NCBI RefSeq assembly: GCF_002775205.1
Contig: NC_036456.1
Coordinates: forward strand, 15,775,463-15,839,462
Reading direction: 5' to 3'
Length of the DNA stretch: 64,000 nt
Source of the DNA: Xiphophorus maculatus
Taxonomy: Eukaryota > Chordata > Actinopteri > Cyprinodontiformes > Poeciliidae
The translations under genes were made by a program, and so were the position numbers. Positions 2,705 through 60,711 of the stretch are shown in pieces. Position 1 is the first letter of the stretch, and every line of letters starts with the position of its first letter. Below the pieces are notes generated by a model, which ran no database searches, was not told the DNA's origin, and saw only the letters and a program-made list of their open reading frames with translations.

Positions 2705-5700
2705 CTGGAGGTGACAGAGGGACGGTGTTAATGTTGGCTGCCATGTGCTAATGAGAGTCACTGCTGTGACATTTGAAGTTGTGTTACTAATTAAAGCCAG
2801 GATGTGACCAGGGGGTGTTCTGTAGGTTTGCATTGGATACAGAGAGGTACACAGCATGTTAGGTGTAGGCAGTGTTCTATATGATTAAATCGAAAAAGGT
2901 AAATTGCTACAAGATGCAAAAGTTACACATTTTTAACTTATAAAATGCTAGACTTTAGAATAGTAATGTTTTGGATAATGATAGCACAATGCAAGATGGC
3001 CACAAGGAGTGAATTTGGAGAAATATGTCTGCTATTATTAGGTAAAAGAAAACATGACCGGAAATATTAAATCGATAAATTGTGTATACAGTATATCACG
3101 TAATTGGATGTTATTAGATGTTTTTGGTTTTATTGGGAAGCTTCTTTTTCCTTGAAAACAAATTACATAAGGGCAAATTCTGCTGACACCTAGTGGGGAA
3201 GCTACAGAATGCAAACAGGTGAAGCTTCATCCCATATTTATATTTCAAGAAATTATTTATTATCGCTATGTAGTGTAAATATTTTTTAAAAGATAATTAA
3301 AGGAGATGTATAGAATATACTGACATCTGGTGGTGACGTTTTAAAATGCATCTATCTAAGCATATTCATCGAATTTGTTATTGATAAACTAGAAAAACAA
3401 AATTTCTGAAGAAATTTAGCCGGGGCCTGCCAAGGCGCGCCCGTCGGGCATGGGCCCGGCGTCGTCACGCCACAAATCGGCGTCGACGCTAAAGAACGCC
3501 GCGACGTAATCAGTGGCACGCGGAGAATCGCAAGAACGTTAAGCGAGGCGGACGTGCACCATTCAGTACGATTTAAAATGTTGTCAAGGCTTTTATTTTG
3601 GAAGTTTTGTTAAACTTCATTTCAAAGGGCCAAACTAATCCCATGCGTAATAGTCCTTGGGTTAAAATAGTTATATAATGCTCAAAACACAAGTAGCTGA
3701 TGTAAAAATATTCAAGGCTTTTATTTTGAAATTTTCAGTATGCTTCATTTCAAAGGGCCAAACTAATACCACGTGTAACAGTGCTTTGGATGAAAAAGTC
3801 AAATAAAGCCAAAAAGAGCAATTACGTCATGTAAAATTATTCAAGGCTTTTATTTTGAAATTTTCAGAATGCTTCATTTCAAAGGGCCAAACTAATACCA
3901 CGTGTAACAGTGCTTTGGATGAAAAAGTCAAATAAAGCCAAAAAGAGCAATTACCTGATGTAAAAATATTCAAGGCTTTTATTTTGAAATTATTATTATG
4001 CTCCATTTTAAAGTTCCAAACTAATCCCATGTGTAACAGTGCTTTGGATGAAAAAGTCATATAAAGCCAAAAACAGCAATTACCTGATGTAAAAATATTC
4101 AAGGCTTTTATTTTGAAATTTTCAGTATGCTTCATTTCAAAGTTCCAAAGTAATCCCATGTGTAACAGTGCTTTGGATGAAAACGTCAAATAAAGCCAAA
4201 AACAGCAATTACCTGATGTAAAAATATTCAAGGCTTTTATTTTGAAATTATTATTATGCTCCATTTTAAAGTTCCGAACTAATCCCATGTGTAACATTGC
4301 TTTGGATGAAAAAGTCATATACGGCCAAAAAGAGCAATTACTTCATGTAAAATATTCAAGGCTTTTATTTTGAAATTTTCAGTATGCTTCATTTTAAAGT
4401 TCTGAACTAATACCACGTGTAAGAGTGCTTTGGATGAAAAAGTCAAATAAAGCCAAAAAGAGCAATTACGTCATGTAAAAATATTCAAGGCTTTTATTTT
4501 GAAACTTTTGTTAAGCTTCATTTCAAAGGGCCAAACTAATACCACGTGTAACAGTGCTTTGGATGAAAAAGTCAAATAAAGCCAAAAAGAGCAATTACAT
4601 GATGTAAAAATATTCAAGGCTTTAATTTTGAAATTTTTGTTAATATTCATTTCAAAGGGCCAAACTAATACCATGTGTAACAGTGCTTTGGATGAAAAAG
4701 TCAAATAAAGCCAAAAAGAGCAATTACGTCATGTAAAAATATTCAAGGCTTTTATTTTGAAATTTGCAGGATGCTTCATTTCAAAGGGCCAAACTAATCC
4801 CATGCGTAATAGTCCTTCGGTTAAAATAGTTATATAATGCTCAAAACACAAGTAGCTGATGTAAAAATATTCAAGGCTTTTATTTTGAAATTTTTGTTAA
4901 GCTTCATTTTAAAGGGCCAAACTAATACCATGTGTAACAGTGCTTTGGATGAAAAAGTCAAATAAAGCCAAAAAAGAGCAATTACGTCATGTAAAAATAT
5001 TCAGGGCTTTTATTGTGAAATTTTCAATATGCTTAATTTTAAAGTGTAAAACTAATCCCATGTGTAACAGTTACTGAGTTAAATCAGTTATATACAGCCC
5101 AAAGCAGCAAGTAGTTGTAAAGGCCAGTTCTCAGTCCTGATCTGTTTCAACTGAGGATAGATAGAACTACAACGATGCGTATTCGTAGTCCTAACCAGCA
5201 GCCAATAGCCTCTTGAGTTCCGTTGCTATGGCAAATAATGGTCTCAGCAGGTGTGAGCTCTGAGCTGTGAGCTCTCAAACACACAAGTGTGTTTGAGCAA
5301 ACACACTTTACTGAAAAAAAGCATTGGAAACAAATCCTTCTTGTTCGGGAACCGTAATACATATTCGAAAAGCGTTTTAAGCGTATGACAGTTCAATGTG
5401 TCTTCTGCGATAGTCCCGAGATTCATATCTGTACCTCACTCAGAGCATTTACAGTGATGAGAGAAAGAAATGTTGTGCCCAGATATGAACCGAGGTCGGC
5501 TGTCACTCTAATATGAGCAAAAATGAGAAACTTTGGGTCGCTTAGAGGCAAATTGTGGACAAACCATAACTGGTATCGACGAGCCGTCTTCACTTTCGAA
5601 GAGATCACAGACGTATCTACAAAATGAAATTTGAATGGCATTTCTAGGTGAATTTGTGACGACACAGCAAATCCTCAAAAATAGGGTATTTCTAGGATTT

Positions 5701-8700
5701 TTCCCATTGAGTTATAATGGGGTTTTTTTCGTAGTTTTTTGCGAATTATGTCGCCATGTTAATCCCGAATCCCACCAAAAGTAATAGCTGGAATGGCGTG
5801 AATTTTCTGCACGTTTTGATACCTCTTTTGTAGGTGTGCACGCAGCGGTATGAGCCGCATTAACGGTTACGGATGAAAAATAAAGAATAATAATAATAAA
5901 GAAACTTTTCTTGGGAGAATAGCAATAGGTTCCTGCCATTGCTTTGCATGGCAGGCCCCAATAAGCTATGTAATTAAATGGGCCATGTGGGACTCTGCTG
6001 ACTCCTAGTGGTGAAGTTGCAGATTGCATCCCTCTGAATGTGTCCTACATCCCCAAATAATTTTATGGAAAATAAATAAATGAATAAGTAAATAAGTTCT
6101 TGATATATTAAGTAGAAATTTGTAATAAATAAGTTATAGAATTAAAGGGACAGACTTATCACACTACTAGAAAGTAGAAGGTGAATATACCGCAATTCAC
6201 ACTTAATTATCTACAAATAATAGATTTTGGAAATATATTGCAAAAATTTAGACTAAAGAAATTACCTAATGAAAAGAACAGTATATTAAATCTGACACCT
6301 AGTGAACTAAATATGCTACACATAGAGGATTAGTGCACACAGTCAAGCAGTGGTAGACGTATTTATGGATTAGATAATGTAAATCATCCTTATTTCAGCT
6401 GGAGTACCCTCCTGATGAGTGCTACCTGTTGAAGCTTTTGTATCCTGGCAGGTTTGTCTGGGGCTCCAGTTCCGGCATGTGGGAGACGAGCGTATCAGCC
6501 AAAGCAGGGTCACTGATGATGGCCTGCTCCCAAGGCGAGTGGTATGACTTTGGCACAGCTGTACAGTTGAACTTCTCTGGCGGGATGTCCTTCAAAGGAC
6601 CTCCATATCCTGAGCAGGTCATATAACACAGATAAGAATTTTCTTCATTTTCTGATTTTTTTCTGTATTTTTAATCTCTCATTTTCTTCTTAAATGCTTT
6701 TGAAAATGCAAATAATAAAGGAGAACAGATGTTATTGTACAGTGTCTGGCAAAAGAAGCTGTACTCCTTAAACTTTTGTCCCAACCACAAACCTCATGTC
6801 ACAATCCTAAAATGTTTGAGATTTGGTTTTCTTTTGTGTTTGAATTTTGATCATTTCTTTGTGGATTATTTACGTTCTGTAAACTGGTAAAAACAACTCC
6901 CATGTCCTACATTTTGTTTCGTACAGAGGGTCTGGGCTGTCGGCTATTGAGAAACAAATGCTTCTTGGACGTGTGGACTCTTTTGAAGTTTTAAATGTCA
7001 CGCAATCGCTAACGTTTGTACTTGACGTATGTATTGAGCTAGTTCTATGCTATGAAGTTTACCGGTAATTTCATATGCTGTAAACAATCATCCCCCACTG
7101 TGAAGAGAAAAGTGCTGAACTGAATGAGGCACGTTCACTTCCACCACTGTCTTTGCTAAAACTAGAGGCAGACTACAATACAAAAAAAGGCAGAAAAACG
7201 ATTTCTCGTTCTCAACTTCTCCTTCTCTTCGCTGACTGGCCTGGTAGAAATTCCACCAGAGGAATCCAAGTAAATGGGAGAAAGCACAAACTGTGCTGCA
7301 AGCGAGAATTGAATTGAGCGGAATAGTGCAGAAAGGCAATAGCCAGCCTAATGTCCTATAGCAGTGGTTCTCAAATGGGGGTATGTGTACCCCTGGGGGT
7401 ACGTGGAGGTACTGCAGGGGGTACGTGAAGCTTTTCAAAATATCTTTAAAAAATCAGTAGGCTCCTCATAATAAGTCTTGGGAAAAATTATTTTGTGAAA
7501 AGTTCGATAAAATATAAATGTGTGTTCATGCACTGAATTTTATATTCAGTATTTAGTTTCAATATCCTTTAAAATAAAACGGTTTGACTGGTTTTATACC
7601 TTCCTGGTGGTCACCATCTTCTGTTTTTCGTTTTTGTTTAACCATGCAATGTTTGCAATATGGATGTATTTGTCAGGTTCACTGATATAAGTTGTTTGGC
7701 TTTAATAAATCAGACAGTGATTTTACAGCACTGTACCCCTTTTTAATTGCCCATGTCAGGGGGTACTTGACTAAAAATATATTTTTAAGGGGGTACATCA
7801 CTGAAAAAGTTTGAGAACCACTGCCCTAGAGCAACGCATGGAAGGAGCAGAGAGTAGAAACGGTAGAAAGGTACTCAACTTTTTCTACTACTTTTACACG
7901 ACTTCACAGGCCCTCGCATACAGGTGCTGGTGCGAGGGCTTTCACAGGCCAGGGCCTTCACATGCCTTCGCATCCAGGTGGCGGTGCGAGGGCCTTCACA
8001 GGTCAGGGCCTTCAAGGATCCCTGGCCTTCACAGGCCCTCACGTCCACGTGGCGGTGCAAGGGCCTTCACAGGTCAGGTCATTCAAGGATCCCTGGCCTT
8101 CACAGTCCCCTCGTGGCGATGCGAGAGCCTTCACAGGTCAGGTCATTCAAGGATCCCTGGCCTTCACAGGCCCTCGCGTCCACGTTCGGTGCGAGGGCCT
8201 TCACAGGTCAGGTCATTCAAGGATCCCTGGCCTTCACAGGCCCTCGCGTCCACGTTCGGTGCGAGGGCCTTCACAGGCCAGGTCCATGAAGGATCCCTGG
8301 CCTTCACAGGCCCTCGCGTCCACGTTCGGTGCGAGGGCCTTCACAGGCCAGGTCCTTGAAGGATCCCAGGCCTTCACAGGCCCTCGCGTCCACGTTCGGT
8401 GCGAGGGCCTCCACAGGCCTTCACATTACCTCGTGGTCATCTTATTCAAGCACTTCTGAAGGAACAGCCTGCGATGTCATCGATGACATCACGTTCGTTT
8501 TGTCGGTCTGATGTCATCAGTGACAGTCAGGGACGGACGTGATGTCATCGATGACATCGCAGGCTGTTACCTCAGAAAAAATGTTTTTTATACCTATGTT
8601 ACATGTCTCAGCTGTATTGAAACAGTTGTAACAATTGATGTTTGTTTTGTTTTGTCTCTTCTTCTCCTTTCTTCCGAGTGGGAAGCCTGTAAACAAGAAC

Positions 8701-11700
8701 AGCTTTAGCGAACGAAGAACGACCGCCATCTTTTTCACCAAACTCTGTCTGAGGCGCAAGGGGGAAAGGAGCGGGGCTCCTCACTCTAGGTCTCCTGGTG
8801 AAACGCTGTCTATAATTTGGCTCTAACAAAACTGGAAACATCAGTATGAGACCTGAAAGAGCGTAGGGACACCCTAGAGCAGTGGTTCTCAAATGGGGGT
8901 ACGTGAAGCTTTTCAAAATATCTTTAAAAAATCAGTAGGCTCCTCATAATAAGTCTTGGGAAAAATTATTTTGTGAAAAGTTCGATAAAATATAAATGTG
9001 TGTTCATGCACTGAATTTTATATTCAGTATTTAGTTTCAATATCCTTTAAAATAAAACGGTTTGACTGGTTTTATACCTTCCTGGTGGTCACCGTCTTCT
9101 GTTTTTCTTTTTTGTTTAACCATGCAATGTTTGCAATATGGATGTATTTGTCAGGTTCACTGATATAAGTTGTTTGGCTTTAATAAATCAGACAGTGATT
9201 TTACAGCACTGTACCCCTTTTTAATTCCAAAAATGTTTTGCCCGTGTCAGGGGGTACTTGACTAAAAATATATTTTTAAGGGGGTACATCACTGAAAAAA
9301 GTTTGAGAATCACTGCCCTAGAGCAACGCATGGAAGGAGCAGAGAGTAGAAACGGTAGAAAGGTACTCAACTTTTTCTACTACTTTTACACGACTTCACA
9401 GGCCCTCGCATACAGGTGCTGGTGCGAGGGCTTTCACAGGCCAGGGCCTTCACATGCCTTCACATCCAGGTGGCGGTGCGAGGGCCTTCACAGGTCAGGG
9501 CCTTCACATGCCTTCACATCCAGGTGGCGGTGCGAGGGCCTTCACAGGTCAGGTCATTCAAGGATCCCTGGCCTTCACAGGCCCTCGCGTCCACGTTCGG
9601 TGCGAGGGCCTTCACAGGCCAGGTCCATGAAGGATCCCTGGCCTTCACAGGCCCTCGCGTCCACGTTCGGTGCGAGGGCCTTCACAGGTCAGGTCATTCA
9701 AGGATCCCTGGCCTTCACAGGCCCTCGCGTCCACGTTCGGTGCGAGGGCCTTCACAGGCCAGGTCCATGAAGGATCCCTGGCCTTCACAGGCCCTCGCGT
9801 CCATGTTCGGTGCGAGGGCCTTCACAGGCCAGGTCCTTGAAGGATCCCAGGCCTTCACAGGCCCTCGCGTCCACGTTCGGTGCGAGGGCCTCCACAGGCC
9901 TTCACATTACCTCGTGGTCGTCTTATTCAAGCACTTCTGAAGGAACAGCCTGCGATGTCATCGATGACATCACGTTCGTTTTGTCGGTCTGATGTCATCA
10001 GTGACAGTCAGGGACGGACGTGATGTCATCGATGACATCGCAGGCTGTTACCTCAGAAAAAATGTTTTTTATACCTATGTTACATGTCTCAGCTGTATTG
10101 AAACAGTTGTAACAATTGATGTTTGTTTTGTTTTGTCTCTTCTTCTCCTTTCTTCCGAGTGGGAAGCCTGTAAACAAGAACAGCTTTAGCGAACGAAGAA
10201 CGACCGCCGTTTTCTTCCCCAAACTCTGTCTGTTTTATTACAAATTGTCAAAATCATGAAATCATGCAATCATACATTGAACATTCCTTTGTGCATTCAT
10301 GTCCATGTGTCCTTCCGTTGCTCCAAAACAACCATATTCCATCTACTTCAATAAACAACATCAGCCCACACCAGCTGTGACAGCATCCATGGGCCAAATC
10401 AAAACAATTCAACAATCGATTTAAATCTTACAGATTTACATAAAAAGAAAACTATTCCTCAAGTTCAGTGAAATTGTAAGGCTACTAATTTCTTTGAATT
10501 GTAATAACTCTGAAAAATGTAATCATATTATTAGTTCTATAATTTAATATGGGCATATTTAGAGGACTAGATCTAGCTTAAGCTAGTACAGTAGAATCAA
10601 TTACAGGGTAGTAGGGGAAAAGCGGTAACGTCTATAATAAATGTTTGAAACTGATGAGAACTGATTTCCGGTACATGTAACAGAGTAACTTTAACACTTC
10701 CTATCAAAAGATAACACAACCCGTCAGGATACCACCGAAATCTTAATAAGGTTGGGTCGGAGAGTGTATCGAAGTTTAGATACATGTAGCAAACTTCTAT
10801 AACGGCTGTTTTACGACCGTTATAGTTACAAACCGTAATTATGAAACAAAATCACTCTTTTTCCCTCGAACGTCTAAACACGTCTAGCAAGTAATTACGA
10901 AATCAGCACCGAATGAACTTGTAAATTTACATTTTAGCGGGGACAGTTCCCACCAGCTTCACACTACTAACCTGTAAACAAGAACAGCTTTAGCGAACGA
11001 AGAACGACCGCCATCTTTTTCCCCAAACTCTGTCTGAGGCGCAAGGGGCAAAGGGGCGGGGCTCCTCACTCTAGGTCTCCTGGTGAAACGCTGTCTATAA
11101 TTTGGCTCTAACAAAACTGGAAACATCAGTATGAGACCTGAAAGAGCGTAGGGACACCCTAGAGCAGTGGTTCTCAAATGGGGGTACGTGAAGCTTTTCA
11201 AAATATCTTTAAAAAATCAGTAGGCTCCTCATAATAAGTCTTGGGAAAAATTATTTTGTGAAAAGTTCGATAAAATATAAATGTGTGTTCATGCACTGAA
11301 TTCTATATTCAGTATTTAGTTTCAATATCCTTTAAAATAAAACGGTTTGACTGGTTTTATACCTTCCTGGTGGTCACCGTCTTCTGTTTTTCTTTTTTGT
11401 TTAACCATGCAATGTTTGCAATATGGATGTATTTGTCAGGTTCACTGATATAAGTTGTTTGGCTTTAATAAATCAGACAGTGATTTTACAGCACTGTACC
11501 CCTTTTTAATTCCGAAAATGTTTTGCCCGTGTCAGGGGGTACTTGACTAAAAATATATTTTTAAGGGGGTACATCACTGAAAAAAGTTTGAGAACCACTG
11601 TTCTATAGGTATTGTCATATTATGTATTATTTCTCAACAGGTCTTGCTATGCTATATTCTGTTCATCAGTACGGTTTTAAAGATTTTACTGTATCTTCTG

Positions 11701-27700: not shown

Positions 27701-30700
27701 ACTGCTTAATTTTACCATTTTTTTAGATTTGATTTTCTTTTAAGACACTTTTATGAGTTTACTATATAAAACTCAGCAATATCATATTTCCTAAATTAAA
27801 CCTTTTTCTCAGTCCATACACCATTCACTTCTGACCCCTTCTTGCTTTCTTCCTATTCTGACCAAAATACTCCCCTACATTCCTAACATCATCAAGTTAG
27901 ATTTGCACAAAACTGCATTTGTTTAGCATAAAAAACATCAACCTTTGTTGACCCTCTTGTGGGTAACCTAAAGGTCTTAATGTGCTACTGAACTAATTTA
28001 AGTAAGTGCTGAACAATTGTGACCTGACACACTTTGTTCTACAACAATAGAAAGCCAACAGGTCAGAGACATTGACTGCTTGAATAAGTTTATACAATGT
28101 GCTTTTCAAGTCTTCCACTGGCCAGTGTATTGTAAGTGCACTGTTTTGACACAACTAGGCAATGAACCTGCCATTTGCCTATGAGAATCACTCTTTTTCA
28201 ACCAATGTTGGCTTCCACACCTGAGCTGAGCTCTTGTTAGCAGTAAATTTAGGCTTGGGGGCAGCTCCAATACCACCACCAGTTACAGATTCAGGCCTAG
28301 CAGCCACAGGAAAACTTGGGGCTATGTAGCTATTAGTAGGCAGTGCTTTGTATGGTACTGAGGGAGTTGCCAGATAGGGAGGGCTGCTGGCTGGCTGGTA
28401 AGCAGCCTGTTGGTAGGGATGGTTTAAAGGCTGAGGGGCTTGGGGATGATAAGTTGGTGGAACAGCCTGCAGATACTGCTGGTTATATTCTTGTTGGTAT
28501 GGACTACCCGGAGATGGCTGATAAGGATAACTATTACCTTGGGCTTGCTGGTAGTGGGGATCATGCATTACAGGCTGCATGAGTATCCCATAGCCTTGCG
28601 GGGGATATGGAGGAGTAAATGGTCCAACTTGTTGCGCAGGAGCCATTTGATCATATCTAATTGTTTGGCTGTCAAGAAGTGAGTTAGGAGGTGAGCTGGG
28701 CTTTGGTACAGGGGGCTTAGCAGCCTCTGCTCCTGTACCAAAGATAAAGAGTGAAGAATCTAGTTTATATGGTTGATGCTTCATGACATCAATAACATTC
28801 AGTGGTTTAGGGGCAGGTATTGGTTTCTCCTGGTCTTTTTTCTTTGCTTTGATTGAAGGACTACTTGCAGGGGGCTGTTTTGTTGCTGCTGGGGGATAAA
28901 AAGGAGATTGAATAGGATTGTAAGCCCTGGGAGGCGGAGCACGTACATTAGGTGTATACTTCCATTCATTTGGTAAGGATGCAGCTGGCGATGTTGAACG
29001 ACTTGCTTTGTTGGCTTCCACAGTCTCAGAATCCACAACAAACTTCTCCATGCGAGATTGCCTCTTAGCAAACATGTCAGCTCCTTTTCCTTTGACCACT
29101 GGCATCTCAAAAGCTGGACCCTGGGACAATTTAGGATTCAAGACAGTGGCCATTGGGTTGACAGGCGATGCAGCTTTTTGACCAACAGCATAAGAGAACA
29201 TTCGCCGTGGTGGAGGGGGAGGAGTCTGGTTTTGCGGTGGGTGCCATGGTTTAGGAGAAGGTTGTCTGTTTACTGTAGACAATGGAACATTCAAAGATGA
29301 TTGCTGTAGCTGTGGTCGCCAGTCATTAACTGGTGTTGGGGGCTGGGCTTGAGCTGATGGCCATGTATTGAGTTGTGGTTGTTGAGATGTATTTGAAAGG
29401 GACTGTTGCCAGTTGGACTGGGGTGTGGGCGGTGAAGGAACTGATTGAGCCCAGGGTGGCTGATGTTGGGCCTGACTTTGGTCCTGAGCCCATGAATTTA
29501 TAGGTTGCTCACCACCATGTTCTGGAGGTTGTGGAGCCCATGATGTCTGAGATGGAGTATGTGCAGGAACTGGTGCCCATGGATTCAGATTAACTTGAAC
29601 CTGTGCTTGAGGTTGTACCTGAGCTGCATTCATCCATGGTGGCTGAGTTTGGGCTTGTGTTTGCGATTGTGCCCATGGATTGGCAGGAGGTTGAGGTTGA
29701 GATTGAGGTTGAGGTGGAGTTGAGACCCAGGGTGGTTGAGGCTGACCTGGAACTTGGGTATTTGCCCATGCTTGTGGGACTGCCTGATGATGTTGTTGTC
29801 CCCAAGATGGTTGTTGCTGTGCTTCTGGTTGAACTTGTTGAACCCAAGGGGGTTGTGGTTGTATTTCTGGCTGAACTTGTTGAACCCATGGTGGCTGTAC
29901 TTGAGATTTTTGCTGAGGTTGTTGAGCCCATGGCAGCTGCTGTTGAGAGTCTGTATGGGGAGGCTGCATCCATTGATTCTGGGGTTGTGTCTGTACTGGT
30001 TCTTGGGCTTGACTCCAGGATGCCTGTGTTTGCTGCAAGTGTTGCTTCTCCTTCATGAGAGTCCATGGTGGTTGAACCTGTGGATGGGACTGAAGCTGCT
30101 CTTGAGGCTGGGCCCAGGATGGTTGAGCGTTTGTCTGAGGTTGTGCTTGCTCTTCATGCGGAGTCCAAGATGGTTGCCCCTGAGGGGTCCAAGTATTTGA
30201 GCTTAGTTGAATCTGCGTTTGGCTTTGAGTAGACTGATGTGTTACCCATGGTGGCTGTGGTGGGGACTGACTTGGAGGTGGGTTCTGAGGTTGCACTTGG
30301 GCTGATTGCCATGAACAAGCAGCTGACTGTTGATGTGCTTGTACCTGTACTGAACCCCAGGTGGCCATTTGAGAGGACTCACAATGCTGAGCAGAAATGA
30401 CTTGGCCATGTGTCTCTTGAGATGTCACTTGTGCAGGCTGCTGTTGAGACTCTGGTTCAGGGAGAGTCCATGAATGCTGCTCGGCTGGGGTGGGATTGGA
30501 AGTGGTTTCCTCAGGGGTAGGAAGGGTAGAGGGGTCAGGGACAGGTGCAGGAGTTGGCTCTAGTTCTTGAGCAGGGGCAGTTTCTGTGGTGGGGGCTGCA
30601 GCAGGTGTGGACAGACTATTTTCAGAACACTGAGGCATGTCCTGGTTGGCTGCTTCTATCTGAGCAGACCAAGGAGGAGAGTTGGGGTTGATCAAAGGCT

Positions 30701-33700
30701 TTGGTGCAACTGGTGGAGGAATCTTAGGTTTAAGTCTTTGGGACTGGAGGAAATTGCAAGCTTCCGCTCCAAGGCTAAGATAGTCTTCTTCAGGACCATA
30801 CTCAAAACCTTTTTTGTCACTTCTATTGAGAAGGTTCAGCAATGCAGGGTTAGGTGATACTTTTGGGGCCTCTTTAAAAGTAAACATAGGCTTGCCGGTA
30901 GTCTTTCTCCTAGAGTCCGACAGCAGGCCTGTCCTAATTGCAGGAGTAGAAATGCGCTCATCACGGGAAGCTATCTGCTCTCCTTGGCCAACAGAATCTT
31001 GATTGGTCCCACTTGCTCCATGAGAATAAGGTGTTGCCACCATGTTTTCTGTTGTGAAAGGTTTGGCAGTACGATTGTTGTAAGAACTCTGAATTTCATT
31101 AGTTTGATGCTGGACTGTACCATTGATATTTGTAGAATACTGCTGCATTTGCTGGTGCTCTTGATATTGTTGCTGTTGCTTATACAGTAGCTGTTGCTTG
31201 TATTGTTGTTGCTCATACTGCTGCTGCTGATATTGTTGATACTGTTGCTGCTGTTGGTAATTTTGCTGTTGCTCATAATACTGTTGCTCCTGATATTGCT
31301 GGTACTGCTGTTGGTTTTGTTGGTGCATATTCACATCCAAATAACCATGACCCTCTGTTGCGGACTGGATGTAGGACTGCTCCGTTACTTTCTTCTCCAA
31401 CTCTTGCACTGCTTCCACAGGTAGTCCTTGACGCCGGAGTTCCTCATGTTCAGCAGTGATCTCATCCATCCTCTGACGCCTTTGAGCAAACATCGCTGCA
31501 CCCTTGCCTTTGGTTTCAGGCAAACATTCCATCTCAGCTTGGTTGTTCAAGTTGTTGTTAATTTCAACAAGACTCTTTCCTAACTTAAAAGTTAGCACGC
31601 CTTTACTACCTGGAGCATTCAAAAGAAAAGGCCCGTTTGATTCACAATCGATAGCAGCTTCAAAGCTAAATTCACCAGCTGGGATTTCTTGCTTATCGTC
31701 TCCGTTCACTTCGTCTTCTTCGTCACTGTAGTCTGGTTCGTCCTCTCCTGTGCCGTAGCTTACAAGCGTGTATTTCTTGGCCCTCTGACGATGTTTCTTG
31801 AACATCAACACCCCCTTATTATTGGGGTTTGAAGGAGCGGCCGACAGAAGGAGAGCAATACGTTTACATTTGGATTTGGCCTCCTTCACCTGTTTCTCTG
31901 ACAGACTCTCGTTACGTCTGAGCCCTGTGTAGAAAATAAAAAAACATATTCAGCAAAAAGGACAATTACATTGCCAAATTAAATATATTTGGCAATATTA
32001 ATATTAATGCCAATATTAATATTGAGTAGATTGCATCTCAGTATAAAGCTATTAATCACTTACAAAAAATCTAAAAACAAAAAAGAGAAATGTAGCAAAA
32101 ATATCAGAGATTACATAAAAAGTCTCATGTAGAAAAACCTAAATCAAGGCAGGGACATAAAATATTGCTTCATAGTGCAATCATCTGGAACCTCCAAAGT
32201 ACATGAAAAGCTAAGAAAAATAATTATTACAAACTGGGACACAGGAGAGAGTAATTAAAGTGACAGTATGACAAAGTGCAACATGAGCTTGGAAGCACAA
32301 GCAGTGCTCCAGAGAAGACTTCAAATTATGGGACAAGGCTTATATTTTAGACATTTAAAGTGTTTTCTTAGAATATGGTTGCAATTATTTAAACATGCAA
32401 TGAACCATAAAATAAGCTAACTTTTTCATTTGCATGATCATGGCTTATATTCTTATTTCAAACAAAATGTCCTGCTTGTGATAAGAAAATATTAATATAT
32501 GAAAGAAGCAGTAAAATTTCCTGACCCGTATATAATGTTTTTATTGGTTCACCCACTAAGCATTCAACGCCATACATCAAATTAACCTTTCAGACAAACA
32601 AGCCAAAAATATGAACCACAAAAATAACTTGCACGCAATAAATTTAAGTCTGATCATCCTTAGAAGTAGCTATTTGTAACTTTAAAGTAGCTCCTTTTTT
32701 GTTTAGACTTCTGACACCTGCTCAAACAACTCACACCATATAACCAACGCAACAACTGACAATGAAAAGTTATTCCTACAAAATAAATCAAACAGTCTTA
32801 CTTCTTAATGCTCACGCAGGAGAAACCAGAGGGTGGAGAAGACAACGAGAGTGAACGACACCCGCACTTTTTCAGCCCTGTTAAAGCACCCAGTTTGAAA
32901 GGATCAGGTAACAGATGAAGGGGACATATGCTGGTGTCTGTCAAAGAGCCACTTCTGCAGGCATCATCAGTGTGCTCTTGTGATATTTCTGTCTTTTAGA
33001 CAGCTCAGAAGAGCTCCTCACTATATGTATTTCCCCCCCATAAAGTTTATAGTGTTTGAAAAACTTACTGGAGTTACGTGTAATCATTCTTTTTCATTTA
33101 TAAAAGTTTAACAGTTTATGTTATGCTTCTTAAAAATATCCTTTCTGTTTTTGTCATATCTGCTTTCACTGAAAGGAATGAGCTTCCTCCTCCGTGAGCA
33201 GTAAGACGCATCCTATTTTAAGGCTTACACACACAGGGCATCAGTCTATGGAATGCACACACTAAACATAGTTTAGTGATGTAATACTACATGGTATAAA
33301 AAGAAAAAAGTTTCTTCAAAGTTACTTACTTGCGTGTTTTGCCCGATGCTTGTTGGGTTTTTCTTGATCCCCTTCTGATTCGGAGTCTTCTTGCTCTTCT
33401 GCTAGAGTTGCCTCGTCCGATGGAATTTCGAATGAGACAGTGAAAGACGCAGGAACAGGCTGACTGGGTCCCCCTCCTTCCTCCTCTTCACTTTGTGACC
33501 CAATGTTTTCGGTGACATCGGGGCCACCCACGCTAAGAGTGCTCCTCCCCGTTCCTGATGCATCTGGCGGCTGCAAAATGTCCTCCACAGTGGGAGCGCG
33601 GACCACCACGCCATGCTGCCCGAGCGGCTCTCTAACGGGGCATTGCACATGGTGGGATGAGGTGGTGTGAACGGGTTCGATTGCTGAGAAGTCCTCCTCA

Positions 33701-58300: not shown

Positions 58301-60711
58301 CACAGGTTTCCAAAACAATTCTTCAAACTTTATTAGTTTTATTTCTTATAGTTTCTGCTATATCAGCCTTTTTTGAAAGGTGATTGGAGCAAATTTAGTG
58401 TAAATATTTCTACCTAGATGACAAGAATGTTCTTCTTTTCATTGAAATTGGAGTAAATGTGAAGGAACACTGAACTTATGTCTTAAAGGTCATTTTTAAA
58501 GAATTGCATAAGTGTTTAAAAGTTCAGCCTTACTGCTTCCAGCTTACCGTGCCATACTGAACCAGCCTGTGAAGAACGTGAGGGACATCCTGGTCAACCA
58601 GACGGCCCACATGCTGGCCTGCTACAGGAAGAACTGCGCCAGTCCATCAGCTGCAAGCCAGGTTGGAGAAATAAAGAAAAACATTTAGTGATTCTCATTT
58701 TAGCATAAAAAGCTCCTGTTTAACTGTATTTTTCTGTATGCAGCTGATCCTGCCTGATTCCATGAGAGTGTTCCCAGTCTACATGAACAGCCTGATGAAA
58801 ACTGCTCCACTAGTGGGCAGCACTGAGCTTTCCACAGACGACAGGGCCCACCAGCGGCTGTCCGTCATGGCTATGGGGGTGGAGGACAGCCAGCTGCAGC
58901 TCTACCCACGCCTCATCCCGCTGGTAGGTGCAGGCAGACAAACTGTGCATGGTCAGCGGTTCTTTGATCAAAACGTCAGCGAACCATGCTTCCTGTCTCC
59001 CAGCACAACGTGGACGTTGGCAGCGAGGCGGTGCCCGATCCGGTCCGCTGCTCTGAGGAACGCCTCTCAGACTCCGGCCTGTTTCTGCTGGAGAATGGGC
59101 ACTCCATCTTTCTGTGGCTGGGCCAAGCGAGCCCGCCGGATCTGATCCAGAGCCTCTTCAACGCGCCCTCGCTCGCCCATTTGCAGCAAGAACACATGGT
59201 GAGAAGTCATCTCATTACACACAGGATGAAACAGTTTGTCTCTTTAGTCTCCAGATGAATTTAATGGGAATTAGAACGACTGGGTGTGTTAATGTGGCCT
59301 AGAATCACAAATGCCACTTCTTCTGCTCTTGTAACCATTAGCAGAATCAATATTACAAACCTTTGCTTTAAACTTTAACCTTCTTTGTGTGGTTAGTTCA
59401 CGCTGCCAGAGCTGGACAACCCGCTGTCAAAGAAGGTCCGAGCCATCATCAGTGAGCTGCTGGAGAAAAGGCCAAACTCTATGAAGGTAACAACTAAAAC
59501 AACAACAAGCTGCTTTCAAAGGAGGAGATAAAGAATAAAAGATACACTTTTAAATGATAAAACAGCAACCTACAAGAAGAGATCATACATGTAAAGTGGA
59601 AGGAAAATAATTTGTAATTTCCATGTTTTTTGACAATACATGCTAGTAATATGTGTTCAACCCAAGATACTTTAGTAGAAACACCTTGAGCTTGAAATGA
59701 ACCTCGGAGCTTTAAGAGAATGAAATGTCTGCCCATTCTTTGCAACATAACTAAATATGATTAGATGGACAGGATAATGATTTGAAAGTCTTGCCTCTGA
59801 TTCTAAATTTCCATTTAAGTCTGGACTTTGACTGGGCCACACAAACACTTTGATCTAAGCCATTCCATTTTAGCAGTGAGTTTGGAGTTGTCCTGCTATA
59901 ATGAGGACCTCCAGCCCATCTCAAGTCTTCTGGAGCCTCTTAACAGGTTTTCTTTTTGTTTCGCTATAAATTGTTCAAAGCATATATTATTTTATAACCA
60001 AACCCTTCTTCAAATGTCTGCATATGTTTGTGTTTACATTACCTACCGGTGGATTCCAATTACTAATTAGACAACTGGTTACACGGACCTAATTTTTGGG
60101 GATAGACACAAATGCACACAGATTTTCAGATATTTTTAGAAGTTAAATCATACATATTTTTTCTTCTACTTCACAATCATCTACCATTGTGTTATAGATT
60201 GAATTTTGCAATTGTAATGTGACAAAAAGTGAAAGTTCAGAATTTGAGTTAATTTGTAAGGCGGTGTATAGTGTAAGTGTTGGTGAGAAACATGTAGATG
60301 TAAAGTAAAATAAATAAACTACACAGTTTCTAGAATATTAGTTACAAAAATCATGTAGAATTAATCCTGTACTACTCTGCCACATAAAATCCCAGTAAAA
60401 TAAGAGGAAGTGAGAAAGTCGTAACAGTATGAATAAGTTACAAACTACTGTGAAGTGACGACCACAGCAGAGGCTCCCCTCCTCAGGTTACCTGGAGTTC
60501 TTACATCATCATGAAGTTTCCAGCTCCTTCACAAACTGCAAACTTGTAACATTTCTCTCATCCTGCTCAGCTGCAGATCGTGAGGCAGAGAGACAAACCG
60601 GAGATGTTGTTCCGTCAGTTCCTGGTGGAGGACAAAGGCCTGCACGGCGGCGCCTCCTACATGGACTTCCTGTGCTACGTTCACCGGGAAATCAGGCAGC
60701 TGCTCACCTAA
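46166..60711 (+). CDS. sec24d: SEC24D, COPII coat cargo-binding subunit, spliced
   Basis: SEC24D pairs with SEC23 in the inner COPII coat and selects cargo at ER exit sites. Twenty-two coding exons with GT-AG borders and consistent phases give 3261 coding bases, that is 1086 residues (human about 1032). The ATG at 46166 starts [20 protein letters not shown], almost the human N-terminus. Residues 1-310 are the Pro/Gly/Gln/Met-rich disordered tail. The SEC23/24 zinc finger has C416, C419, C438 and C441. The trunk domain spans about 480-730 ([43 protein letters not shown]). The beta-sandwich follows ([23 protein letters not shown]), then the helical domain ([20 protein letters not shown]) and the gelsolin domain ([20 protein letters not shown]), ending [20 protein letters not shown]. 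These features separate it from SEC24A/B, and the synteny supports D over C. Introns contain only repeats. Confidence 0.97.
46595..46626 (+). repeat. Right terminus of the abundant dispersed repeat
   Basis: GGTTATGAATACTTTTGCAA followed by AGCACTGTA matches the right end of the family. It is a fragment in intron 2. Confidence 0.5.
46653..46713. repeat. Two adjacent perfect hairpins
   Basis: CCTTTTGGCACTG and its inverse around a single C (46653-46679) are followed three bases later by ATGAAGATGATC and its inverse around TACAGTG (46683-46713). They lie in sec24d intron 2. Confidence 0.95.
47537..47639 (+). CDS. sec24d: sec24d exon 3
   Basis: The exon lies between CATTGCAG and CAAAG|GTAAAT. 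It encodes Pro/Ser-rich residues 51-84 ([18 protein letters not shown]) of the N-terminal tail. Phases 1 to 2. Confidence 0.88.
47771..47804. repeat. Perfect hairpin, 13-bp arms
   Basis: TGACAGAATACCT and its inverse enclose TAGGTAGG, in sec24d intron 3. Confidence 0.95.
47861..47994 (+). CDS. sec24d: sec24d exon 4
   Basis: The acceptor ACATTCCACAG and donor AGCTATG|GTAAAG bound residues 85-129, which include the [14 protein letters not shown] block (human LGSQLSAMQINSYG). Phases 2 to 1. Confidence 0.92.
48078..48527 (+). CDS. sec24d: sec24d exon 5 (with decapeptide repeat)
   Basis: The exon lies between TCCTCAAAG and CAATCAG|GTAAC. It encodes about residues 130-279 of the disordered tail and includes five tandem copies of MGGQSM(A/T)GPP. 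Phases 1 to 1. Confidence 0.92.
48269..48418 (+). repeat. Coding minisatellite, five 30-bp units
   Basis: The unit ATGGGAGGACAGTCGATG(G/A)C plus TGGGCC(G/A)CCA is repeated five times with almost no divergence. Residue 7 alternates between Ala and Thr (A, T, A, A, T). The near identity indicates recent expansion. Confidence 0.95.
49166..49287 (+). CDS. sec24d: sec24d exon 6
   Basis: The exon lies between AACTTGCAG and AGCACA|GTGAGT. It encodes the Gly-rich end of the tail and the conserved [13 protein letters not shown]. Phases 1 to 0. Confidence 0.95.
49479..49590 (+). CDS. sec24d: sec24d exon 7
   Basis: The exon encodes [20 protein letters not shown] and [16 protein letters not shown], the segment just before the zinc finger. 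Phases 0 to 1. Confidence 0.95.
50249..50376 (+). CDS. sec24d: sec24d exon 8
   Basis: The exon encodes [20 protein letters not shown] and [13 protein letters not shown], highly conserved in SEC24. Phases 1 to 0. Confidence 0.96.
51170..51245 (+). repeat. Left terminus of the abundant dispersed repeat
   Basis: GAGTGCCTTGCAAAAGAATC, CCTTTGAACTTTTTTACATT and AACCAAAAACTTTAATAT match the left end of the family. It stops 31 bases before exon 9. Confidence 0.6.
51276..51414 (+). CDS. sec24d: sec24d exon 9 (zinc finger)
   Basis: The exon encodes [18 protein letters not shown] and [11 protein letters not shown], the two CxxC pairs of the SEC23/24 zinc finger. Phases 0 to 1. Confidence 0.97.
51525..51640 (+). 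CDS. sec24d: sec24d exon 10
   Basis: The exon encodes [20 protein letters not shown] and [18 protein letters not shown]. Phases 1 to 0. The acceptor is TTTCTCGTCAAG. Confidence 0.96.
52130..52250 (+). repeat. Dispersed repeat fragment
   Basis: TATATTCAGCCCCCTTCCTT, GCTAAATAAAACCTATTTTT and TTGCCTTCAGAAGTCACTTG follow a known fish repeat variant that I cannot name. It is in intron 10. Confidence 0.45.
52683..52807 (+). CDS. sec24d: sec24d exon 11 (start of trunk domain)
   Basis: The exon encodes [20 protein letters not shown] and [18 protein letters not shown]. Phases 0 to 2. Confidence 0.96.
54794..54985 (+). CDS. sec24d: sec24d exon 12
   Basis: The exon encodes [20 protein letters not shown] and [20 protein letters not shown] of the trunk domain. 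Phases 2 to 2. The donor is CTACAA|GTAAGA. Confidence 0.97.
55135..55228 (+). CDS. sec24d: sec24d exon 13
   Basis: The exon encodes [20 protein letters not shown] and [11 protein letters not shown]. Phases 2 to 0. The donor is AAG|GTTAGC. Confidence 0.96.
55950..56066 (+). CDS. sec24d: sec24d exon 14
   Basis: The exon encodes [20 protein letters not shown] and [12 protein letters not shown], almost identical to the human segment. Phases 0 to 0. Confidence 0.97.
56173..56343 (+). CDS. sec24d: sec24d exon 15
   Basis: The exon encodes [20 protein letters not shown] and [16 protein letters not shown], up to KYNNFQ. Phases 0 to 0. The acceptor is GTACAATAG. Confidence 0.97.
57531..57627 (+). CDS. 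sec24d: sec24d exon 16
   Basis: The exon encodes [20 protein letters not shown] and VMRVRTST. Phases 0 to 1. The acceptor is CATCTGCTGACAG. Confidence 0.96.
57711..57856 (+). CDS. sec24d: sec24d exon 17
   Basis: The exon encodes [20 protein letters not shown] and [20 protein letters not shown] of the beta-sandwich. Phases 1 to 0. Confidence 0.97.
57938..58076 (+). CDS. sec24d: sec24d exon 18
   Basis: The exon encodes [20 protein letters not shown] and [13 protein letters not shown]. Phases 0 to 1. Confidence 0.97.
58543..58661 (+). CDS. sec24d: sec24d exon 19
   Basis: The exon encodes the helical-domain segment with [20 protein letters not shown]. Phases 1 to 0. Confidence 0.97.
58744..58923 (+). 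CDS. sec24d: sec24d exon 20
   Basis: The exon encodes [20 protein letters not shown] and [20 protein letters not shown]. Phases 0 to 0. Confidence 0.96.
59004..59198 (+). CDS. sec24d: sec24d exon 21 (gelsolin domain)
   Basis: The exon encodes [20 protein letters not shown] and [17 protein letters not shown]. Phases 0 to 0. The donor is CACATG|GTGAGA. Confidence 0.96.
59397..59486 (+). CDS. sec24d: sec24d exon 22
   Basis: The exon encodes [20 protein letters not shown] and [10 protein letters not shown]. Phases 0 to 0. Confidence 0.95.
59500..60265 (+). repeat. Near full-length copy of the abundant dispersed repeat
   Basis: GTAAAGTGGAAGGAAAATAA, CTGGACTTTGACTGGGCCAC, TTTGATCTAAGCCATTCCAT, GTTGTCCTGCTATAATGAGG and TGGAGCCTCTTAACAGGTTT appear in the order of a repeat that I recall as very abundant in fish. 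The segment ends in TGTAATGTGACAAAAAGTGA and TAAGGCGGTGTATA. It is in the last sec24d intron and encodes nothing intact. Confidence 0.7.
60571..60711 (+). CDS. sec24d: sec24d exon 23 (terminal)
   Basis: The exon encodes [20 protein letters not shown] and [20 protein letters not shown], ending IRQLLT and TAA. Phase 0. The acceptor is CATCCTGCTCAG. Confidence 0.97.

What the first reader, a model, noticed from the sequence alone, without database searches (positions are those of the whole stretch)
7354..11608. A 4.2-kb macro-element moved by the outermost ends of tandem hAT copies
Three hAT copies alternate with two related spacers. The middle copy has perfect CCCTAGAG flanks on both sides, while the outermost flanks are TCCTATAG and TTCTATAG. 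The flank pattern means the outer pair behaves as one transposon end pair, so the whole repeat-bearing block appears to have been mobilised as a unit. This would be composite-transposon behaviour by a non-autonomous hAT family in a vertebrate, carrying minisatellites and a gene fragment.
Basis: partly seen in the sequence, partly recalled or inferred. Interest (0 to 1): 0.75.

Follow-up and report, generated by a model that had tools for sequence, protein, structure and literature searches.

The report
Composite hAT transposon family, fish-like genome
In an unnamed, fish-like genome, copies of a tiny cut-and-paste transposon flank a piece of a tandem-repeat array and appear to have carried it as one unit to more than twenty places, which shows how satellite DNA and gene scraps can become mobile.

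Summary
Window 7354-11608 is hAT-spacer A-hAT-spacer B-hAT with outer octamers TCCTATAG/TTCTATAG and four inner CCCTAGAG. The window's own assembly holds the same composite at many places. In 29 elements with both outermost ends read, outer octamers are identical in 23, one base apart in 5 (the window's included) and three apart in 1; across loci 0 of 812 pairings are identical. Joined flanks of three elements occur elsewhere as uninterrupted repeats. A contig-20 array shows the likely origin: the spacer is a tandem-repeat unit whose junction reads X-CCCTAGAG-Y without a hAT at the array edges. Inferred: a hAT MITE entered there, adjacent hATs bracketed a unit, and the outermost ends moved it. 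The block is a multimer of a multi-copy composite (macrotransposon) family, akin to maize Ac/Ds macrotransposons and KolobokP. My ten literature searches listed no such vertebrate hAT family. Not shown: the transposase, the window's own empty site, or present activity.

The parts
7354..7361 (.). outer target-site copy, left (TCCTATAG)
   Evidence: 7/8 match to 11601-11608
7362..7823 (+). left hAT MITE (462 bp), full 5' subterminal region, 13-bp internal deletion near the 3' end
7824..7831 (.). inner octamer CCCTAGAG (Y side)
7832..8871 (+). spacer A = tandem-array unit lacking the 804-bp segment (66-bp repeat copy plus 738 bp)
7902..8417 (+). minisatellite of spacer A (54/70-bp periods)
8454..8577 (.). 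hairpin (45-nt arms, 93% complementary) of spacer A
8686..8751 (-). 66-bp exon-like piece, apparent hybrid of the two copies in spacer B
   Evidence: matches B-right at 3 of 3 sites at which the two B copies differ
8872..8879 (.). inner octamer CCCTAGAG (X side)
8880..9315 (+). middle hAT MITE (436 bp), 40-bp 5' deletion shared with the right copy
9316..9323 (.). inner octamer CCCTAGAG (Y side)
9324..11156 (+). spacer B = full array unit
9394..9900 (+). minisatellite of spacer B
9935..10058 (.). hairpin of spacer B
10167..10232 (-). 66-bp exon-like repeat, copy b
10233..10970 (-). 738-bp intron-like segment (INT); 40 of 76 genome candidates scored, all 40 match at 99-100% over positions 1-738
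10971..11036 (-). 66-bp exon-like repeat, copy a; minus strand carries ATG and ends at a splice-donor-like CAG|GTTAGT (reading inferred)
11157..11164 (.). inner octamer CCCTAGAG (X side)
11165..11600 (+). right hAT MITE (436 bp), 40-bp 5' deletion
11601..11608 (.). outer target-site copy, right (TTCTATAG)

Best explanation
The block is a multimeric member of a non-autonomous composite (macro-) transposon family. Shown: elements consisting of one or more array units bracketed by two ~470-bp hAT MITEs occur at many sites with unrelated flanks; nearly every one whose ends were read has its own matching octamers at the outermost hAT ends; and in a tandem array of the same unit the MITE's inner site (CCCTAGAG) exists without a hAT. 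Inferred: a hAT transposase supplied in trans pairs the left end of the leftmost hAT with the right end of the rightmost one, cuts out everything between (minisatellite, hairpin and exon/intron-like piece included) and inserts it with an 8-bp target duplication. Also inferred: the left hAT sometimes leaves alone, and tandem exchange between the direct hAT repeats makes multimers such as the window's. Spacer A looks like spacer B after deletion between the 66-bp repeats (3 of 3 distinguishing sites); units without INT also occur in L011, L013 and L020.
For: Outer octamers identical in 23 of 29 elements, 1 mismatch in 5, 3 mismatches in 1; control over all 29: 0 of 812 cross-locus pairs identical, 21 of 812 within one mismatch. 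Inner octamers instead stay close to CTCTAGAG or CCCTAGAG. Flanks of the first 22 elements are unrelated to one another except for repeats beside L017 and L028. Paralogous empty sites: L050, 40 of 146 candidates scored, all 40 spanning the junction, best 99% on the same contig; L028, 40 of 241 candidates scored, best 96% spanning, although its right octamer is altered; L051, 2 spanning matches at 85-86%. Array: X-CCCTAGAG-Y uninterrupted at both edges of the C20 array (L048, L049) and inside L050. Unit inheritance: 17 of 20 right hATs and 5 of 5 middle ones carry the 18- or 40-bp 5' deletion, while 17 of 19 left ones do not (copies truncated at that stage, and loci fetched later, are not in these counts). 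In 4 loci lacking the left hAT, the left junction keeps the first 3, 6, 6 and 7 bases of the right-hand octamer next to the spacer, as an excision footprint would.
Against: No transposase was identified and no live excision was seen. The window's octamers match at 7 of 8, and its own empty site is untested. L028's octamers fail with 3 mismatches. A one-mismatch agreement is by itself weak (21 of 812 cross pairs). Two loci (L041/42, L045/46) showed no readable pair of outer ends in the short windows fetched. Two loci lack the left hAT without a supporting footprint: L041, whose right end was not found, and L054, whose junction does not clearly match its right octamer. Eight class I sites (L021 to L027b) gave only own-locus half matches, so no paralogous empty site. 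L016 and L021 carry the 5' deletion on both hATs and still have perfect duplications, which removes my idea that deleted inner ends are defective. L025, L026 and L028 have it on neither. The hAT tree has no well-supported inner branch (0 of 40 starred) and does not cleanly separate left from right copies. L050, L052 and L053 were picked partly because hAT matches lay beside them.
Confidence: 0.87

Rival explanations
1. Circles carrying one hAT plus the spacer entered pre-existing solo hATs by homologous recombination. The outer octamers would then be the duplications of the solo hATs, and the left-intact/right-deleted asymmetry would follow automatically.
For: hAT copies are abundant (512 candidates, 40 scored). 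The model predicts outer duplications, the empty sites and the left/right asymmetry equally well.
Against: It predicts more diversity in left 5' and right 3' parts (from varied residents) than in the inner parts. Point estimates are the opposite: outer quarters 0.0138 and 0.0088, inner quarters 0.0189 and 0.0189; halves agree in direction (no significance test; L022 and L028 left out). Composites cluster (10 of 34 places within 1.65 Mb of C14, random maximum 4 in 5000 trials, width chosen after seeing the data), whereas 25 of the 40 listed hAT matches lie away from known spacer places, on 16 contigs, 1 of them in that cluster. Two neighbouring elements with different duplications (L027a, L027b) share a left-5' variant and INT variants, though L023 also has the left-5' variant.
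Confidence: 0.07
2. Plain local tandem duplication of a hAT-plus-spacer segment; the outer octamers resemble each other only because of target preference.
For: Within the window the 7/8 match has a chance of up to 0.20 if the family always targets nnCTAnAG. The middle hAT is probably a tandem duplicate.
Against: The composite recurs at many unrelated sites, nearly all with their own matching outer octamers.
Confidence: 0.03
3. Assembly chimera that pasted array sequence into a solo hAT by way of near-identical 450-bp repeats.
For: Near-identical hATs are a hazard for assemblers; no reads are available.
Against: The same structure recurs at 29 scored elements with locus-specific octamers and locus-specific changes; the window has no N.
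Confidence: 0.02
4. About the founder only, not exclusive of the best explanation: an Ac-type composite insertion by reversed-ends transposition with re-replication made the first composite.
For: Such events produce flanking DNA bounded by transposon ends and 8-bp duplications (PMC4270019, passages).
Against: Not needed for the founder: the array already has X joined to Y at CCCTAGAG.
Confidence: 0.1

Closest known systems
Ac/Ds macrotransposons and Composite Insertions of maize (hAT)
   Same: Outer ends of two nearby hAT elements carry the DNA between them, with 8-bp duplications at the outer ends; excision of a macrotransposon is reported there (PMC9910405 and PMC4270019, passages only).
   Different: Here a MITE in a fish-like genome brackets a tandem-array unit, and the composite itself has become a multi-copy dispersed family; founder formation appears to use a tandem array and need not involve re-replication.
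KolobokP (LTDR-INT-LTDR composite-like transposons)
   Same: Direct terminal repeats that each have their own TIRs, multimers of the form (LTDR-INT)n-LTDR, and suggested excision of single terminal repeats (PMC9587614, passages and section 7).
   Different: KolobokP encodes a transposase and a nuclease and has 3-5-bp duplications; this family is hAT-like (8 bp), no coding function was recognised in it, and its terminal repeat is also an abundant MITE elsewhere.
Ds2 and Ds-l4 elements carrying gene fragments (maize hAT)
   Same: Non-autonomous hAT elements with captured gene pieces (PMC3260210, passages).
   Different: Those are described as single elements with internal filler; here two complete MITEs flank the cargo.
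Buster-type hAT MITEs such as Mar
   Same: 8-bp duplication with nnnTAnnn consensus (PMC3517528, passages).
   Different: My terms for composite, tandem or nested forms had no occurrence in that paper.

Membership tests
hAT superfamily | 8-bp target-site duplication | tested here: met
   23 of 29 exact, 5 with one mismatch, 1 with three
hAT superfamily | short terminal inverted repeats | tested here: met
   14-bp TIR in the window copies, one mismatch in the middle copy
hAT superfamily | hAT transposase encoded or supplied in trans | not tested
   the 462-bp MITE is too short to encode one; no autonomous partner was sought
Buster group of hAT | nnnTAnnn target consensus | tested here: met
   T at position 4 in 29 of 29 and A at position 5 in 28 of 29 left octamers; transposase phylogeny not available, so group membership stays open
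macrotransposon (Ac/Ds type) | DNA between two elements moved by their outermost ends | tested here: met
   locus-specific outer duplications and paralogous empty sites for three elements
macrotransposon (Ac/Ds type) | observed excision of the whole unit | not testable with these tools
   single assembly, no reads or individuals
KolobokP | Kolobok-type target duplications of 3-5 bp | tested here: not met
   8-bp duplications
KolobokP | encoded DDD/E transposase and nuclease | tested here: inconclusive
   only one 70-aa spacer ORF was scanned and had no Pfam match

The most novel reading that the evidence does not exclude
Tandem arrays that offer a preferred hAT target in every unit act as factories for composite transposons: the same MITE entered the same array junction in both orientations, and both arrangements (class I, and class II with inverted hATs) went mobile, so satellite units and a gene scrap are dispersed as transposons. 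The outermost ends stay conserved while the inner ends decay.
Probability: 0.5. Interest if true: 0.72.

Novelty: new variant of a known kind. Interest (0 to 1): 0.62.

Why it matters
Composite transposition by hAT ends is documented in maize alleles and lines (passages read). Here it looks like a natural, multi-copy lineage in a fish-like genome, with the likely pre-composite state (the array), a hAT-free junction, monomers, multimers and apparent loss of one terminal hAT all still visible. That makes the birth of a composite eukaryotic transposon, and the spread of satellite units by MITE ends, directly testable.

Tried and rejected
Pattern scans of the hAT end in genome contigs and viral contigs and of the exon-like piece in viral contigs found nothing, as expected for animal DNA. 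The idea that deleted inner 5' ends are transposition-dead was dropped: L016 and L021 have the deletion on the outer left end with perfect duplications. A look for a poly-A run of 8 or more, or a second copy of the flanking word, to prove that the exon-like piece is a spliced retrocopy found none in the block, so that stays open. Pfam gave no family for the 70-aa ORF. A joined-flank scan of 8 class I sites found only own-locus halves (16 of 16 matches). Literature: 10 of 10 searches used, several with capped lists. 'Macrotransposon' occurs in 7 held papers; the one on a fish (Teratorn, PMC10175614) has it only in its reference list. I read passages, not whole papers: PMC3260210, PMC9910405, PMC3942097, PMC3517528, PMC10175614, PMC4270019, PMC4255032, and passages plus section 7 of PMC9587614.
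Full report
WHAT IS THERE. The window holds three same-strand hAT-type MITEs with 14-bp TIRs and two homologous spacers. The outer octamers are TCCTATAG and TTCTATAG; all four inner ones are CCCTAGAG. Only the pairings L1-R3 and L2-R2 agree within one base. The flanks outside the block are unlike the spacer ends. Within the window alone, the outer match could be chance at 0.0006 to 0.20 depending on how strict the family's target preference is, so I looked for independent insertions.

THE GENOME TEST. The window's own assembly (704 Mb, 101 contigs) became searchable. Spacer A matched at 34 distinct places by my count (113 rows; 40 of 198 candidates scored, so this is a lower bound). I read 31 of the 34: the window, 21 places in L009-L028, and 9 through short end windows. 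Three were not read (C12:14.21 Mb, C12:16.45 Mb, C8:16.02 Mb). The INT search (40 of 76 candidates scored) led to four further composites with both ends (L050-L053), one with its left hAT missing (L054) and the C20 array (L047-L049); one more listed INT place outside the array (C20:28.57 Mb) was not read.

RESULT. Both outermost ends, meaning the ends of hATs joined to the spacer, could be read in 29 elements. In the first 22, outer octamers were identical in 18, one base apart in 3 (window, L017, L020) and three apart in 1 (L028). Three of the nine end-window loci gave identical octamers; of the other six, four lack the left hAT and two gave no readable pair. L050 and L051 gave identical ones, L052 and L053 one mismatch. 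Totals: 23 identical, 5 with one mismatch, 1 with three. Pairing left octamers with right octamers of other elements gave 0 of 812 identical and 21 of 812 within one base (0 and 16 of 462 for the first 22). Inner octamers stay close to CTCTAGAG or CCCTAGAG. That is the signature of unit insertion by the outermost ends.

EMPTY SITES. The joined flanks of L050 (one CTCTATTG) occur uninterrupted at 99% identity elsewhere on the same contig and at the other 39 places scored, of 146 candidates. Those of L028 (one CTCTAGAG), the element that fails the octamer test, occur uninterrupted at up to 96% (40 of 241 candidates scored; also related copies in L018 and L019), so it too looks like a clean insertion whose right octamer was later altered. 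Those of L051 span the junction at two other places at 85-86%. Eight other sites had no paralogous copy. The window's own site, alone or in a batch, did not complete.

ORIGIN. The 738-bp INT piece is repeated 10 times at about 3.2-3.3-kb spacing on C20:28.32-28.35 Mb. In the part read (L047, two inter-unit gaps) the units (Y-minisatellite-hairpin-exon-INT-exon-X) are head to tail, and between them sits a different ~1.5-kb element flanked by CCCTAGAG. At both edges of the array X-CCCTAGAG-Y is uninterrupted, though the units there are truncated, and the same junction is intact inside L050. So the spacer is an array unit and CCCTAGAG is the unit junction. A hAT that entered it, followed by array exchange, leaves units bracketed by hATs: a composite ready to move. 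This ordering is inferred; no hAT-bracketed unit was seen inside the part of the array that was read.

UNIT INHERITANCE AND VARIANTS. Right hATs carry an 18- or 40-bp 5' deletion in 17 of 20, middle ones in 5 of 5, left ones in 2 of 19, which fits one founder amplified as a unit, with exceptions (L016, L021, L025, L026, L028). INT copies differ by 1.1% on average (21 copies of at least 700 bp), so the spread looks recent. Elements with three or more hATs or hAT pieces: the window, L013, L014, L020, L023. Four loci lack the left hAT, and the bases next to the spacer retain part of the right-hand octamer (GCCTAG, TGT, GTGTAG and CCTTACT of GCCTAGTG, TGTTAGAG, GTGTAGCG and CCTTACTG), as an excision footprint of the left hAT alone would; L041 and L054 also lack it but give no such support. 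Five elements or relics have the hATs inverted relative to the spacer (L028, L050, L052, L053, L054). They suggest a second, independent composite, though an inversion cannot be excluded.

MAIN RIVAL. Homologous entry of hAT-spacer circles into solo hATs would also give outer duplications, empty sites and the left/right asymmetry. It predicts greater diversity at the outer than at the inner hAT parts; the point estimates are reversed (0.0138 and 0.0088 against 0.0189 and 0.0189, no significance test). The clustering of composites on C14 (10 of 34 in 1.65 Mb; random maximum 4 in 5000 trials) resembles the local hopping known for hAT elements (recalled) more than random capture of dispersed hATs: 25 of the 40 listed hAT matches lie away from spacer places, on 16 contigs. 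Whether those 25 are true solo insertions was not checked.

KNOWN KINDS. The mechanism is that of Ac/Ds macrotransposons (passages), and the architecture is close to KolobokP. The new points are a vertebrate-type hAT MITE, a tandem-array cargo, and amplification of the composite itself. That the genome is a fish is inferred from a SYNPO2-like ORF and neighbouring SEC24-like exons (names recalled; a Sec23_helical domain was found) and from genome size; no tool named it.

Noticed in passing
L047:1000-2513 (C20 array): A different ~1.5-kb element with ends CACATGTGTCAAACTCAAGG / CAGGGGTGTCAAACTCAA sits at the same CCCTAGAG junction between array units, so at least two transposon families seem to have used this site.
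   Followed up: partly
C14:14.17-15.79 Mb: 10 of 34 spacer places lie within 1.65 Mb of one contig, like local hopping.
   Followed up: partly
L028 and L054: Two elements with inverted hATs share the right-hand octamer GGATAGAG although the sequence beyond differs; unexplained.
   Followed up: no
window 3584-5071: Tandem repeat of 129-bp period, 11.6 copies.
   Followed up: no
window 10971-11036 and 10233-10970, minus strand: Exon-like 66-bp piece with ATG in an AAGATGGCGG context followed by a donor-like GTTAGT; in spacer A and copy b it is joined instead to another sequence as if spliced. The source gene was not found.
   Followed up: partly
window 28188-31949 (-) and 58675-59142 (+): Large SYNPO2-like ORF (name recalled; no Pfam match) and a Sec23_helical domain exon (Pfam).
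   Followed up: no
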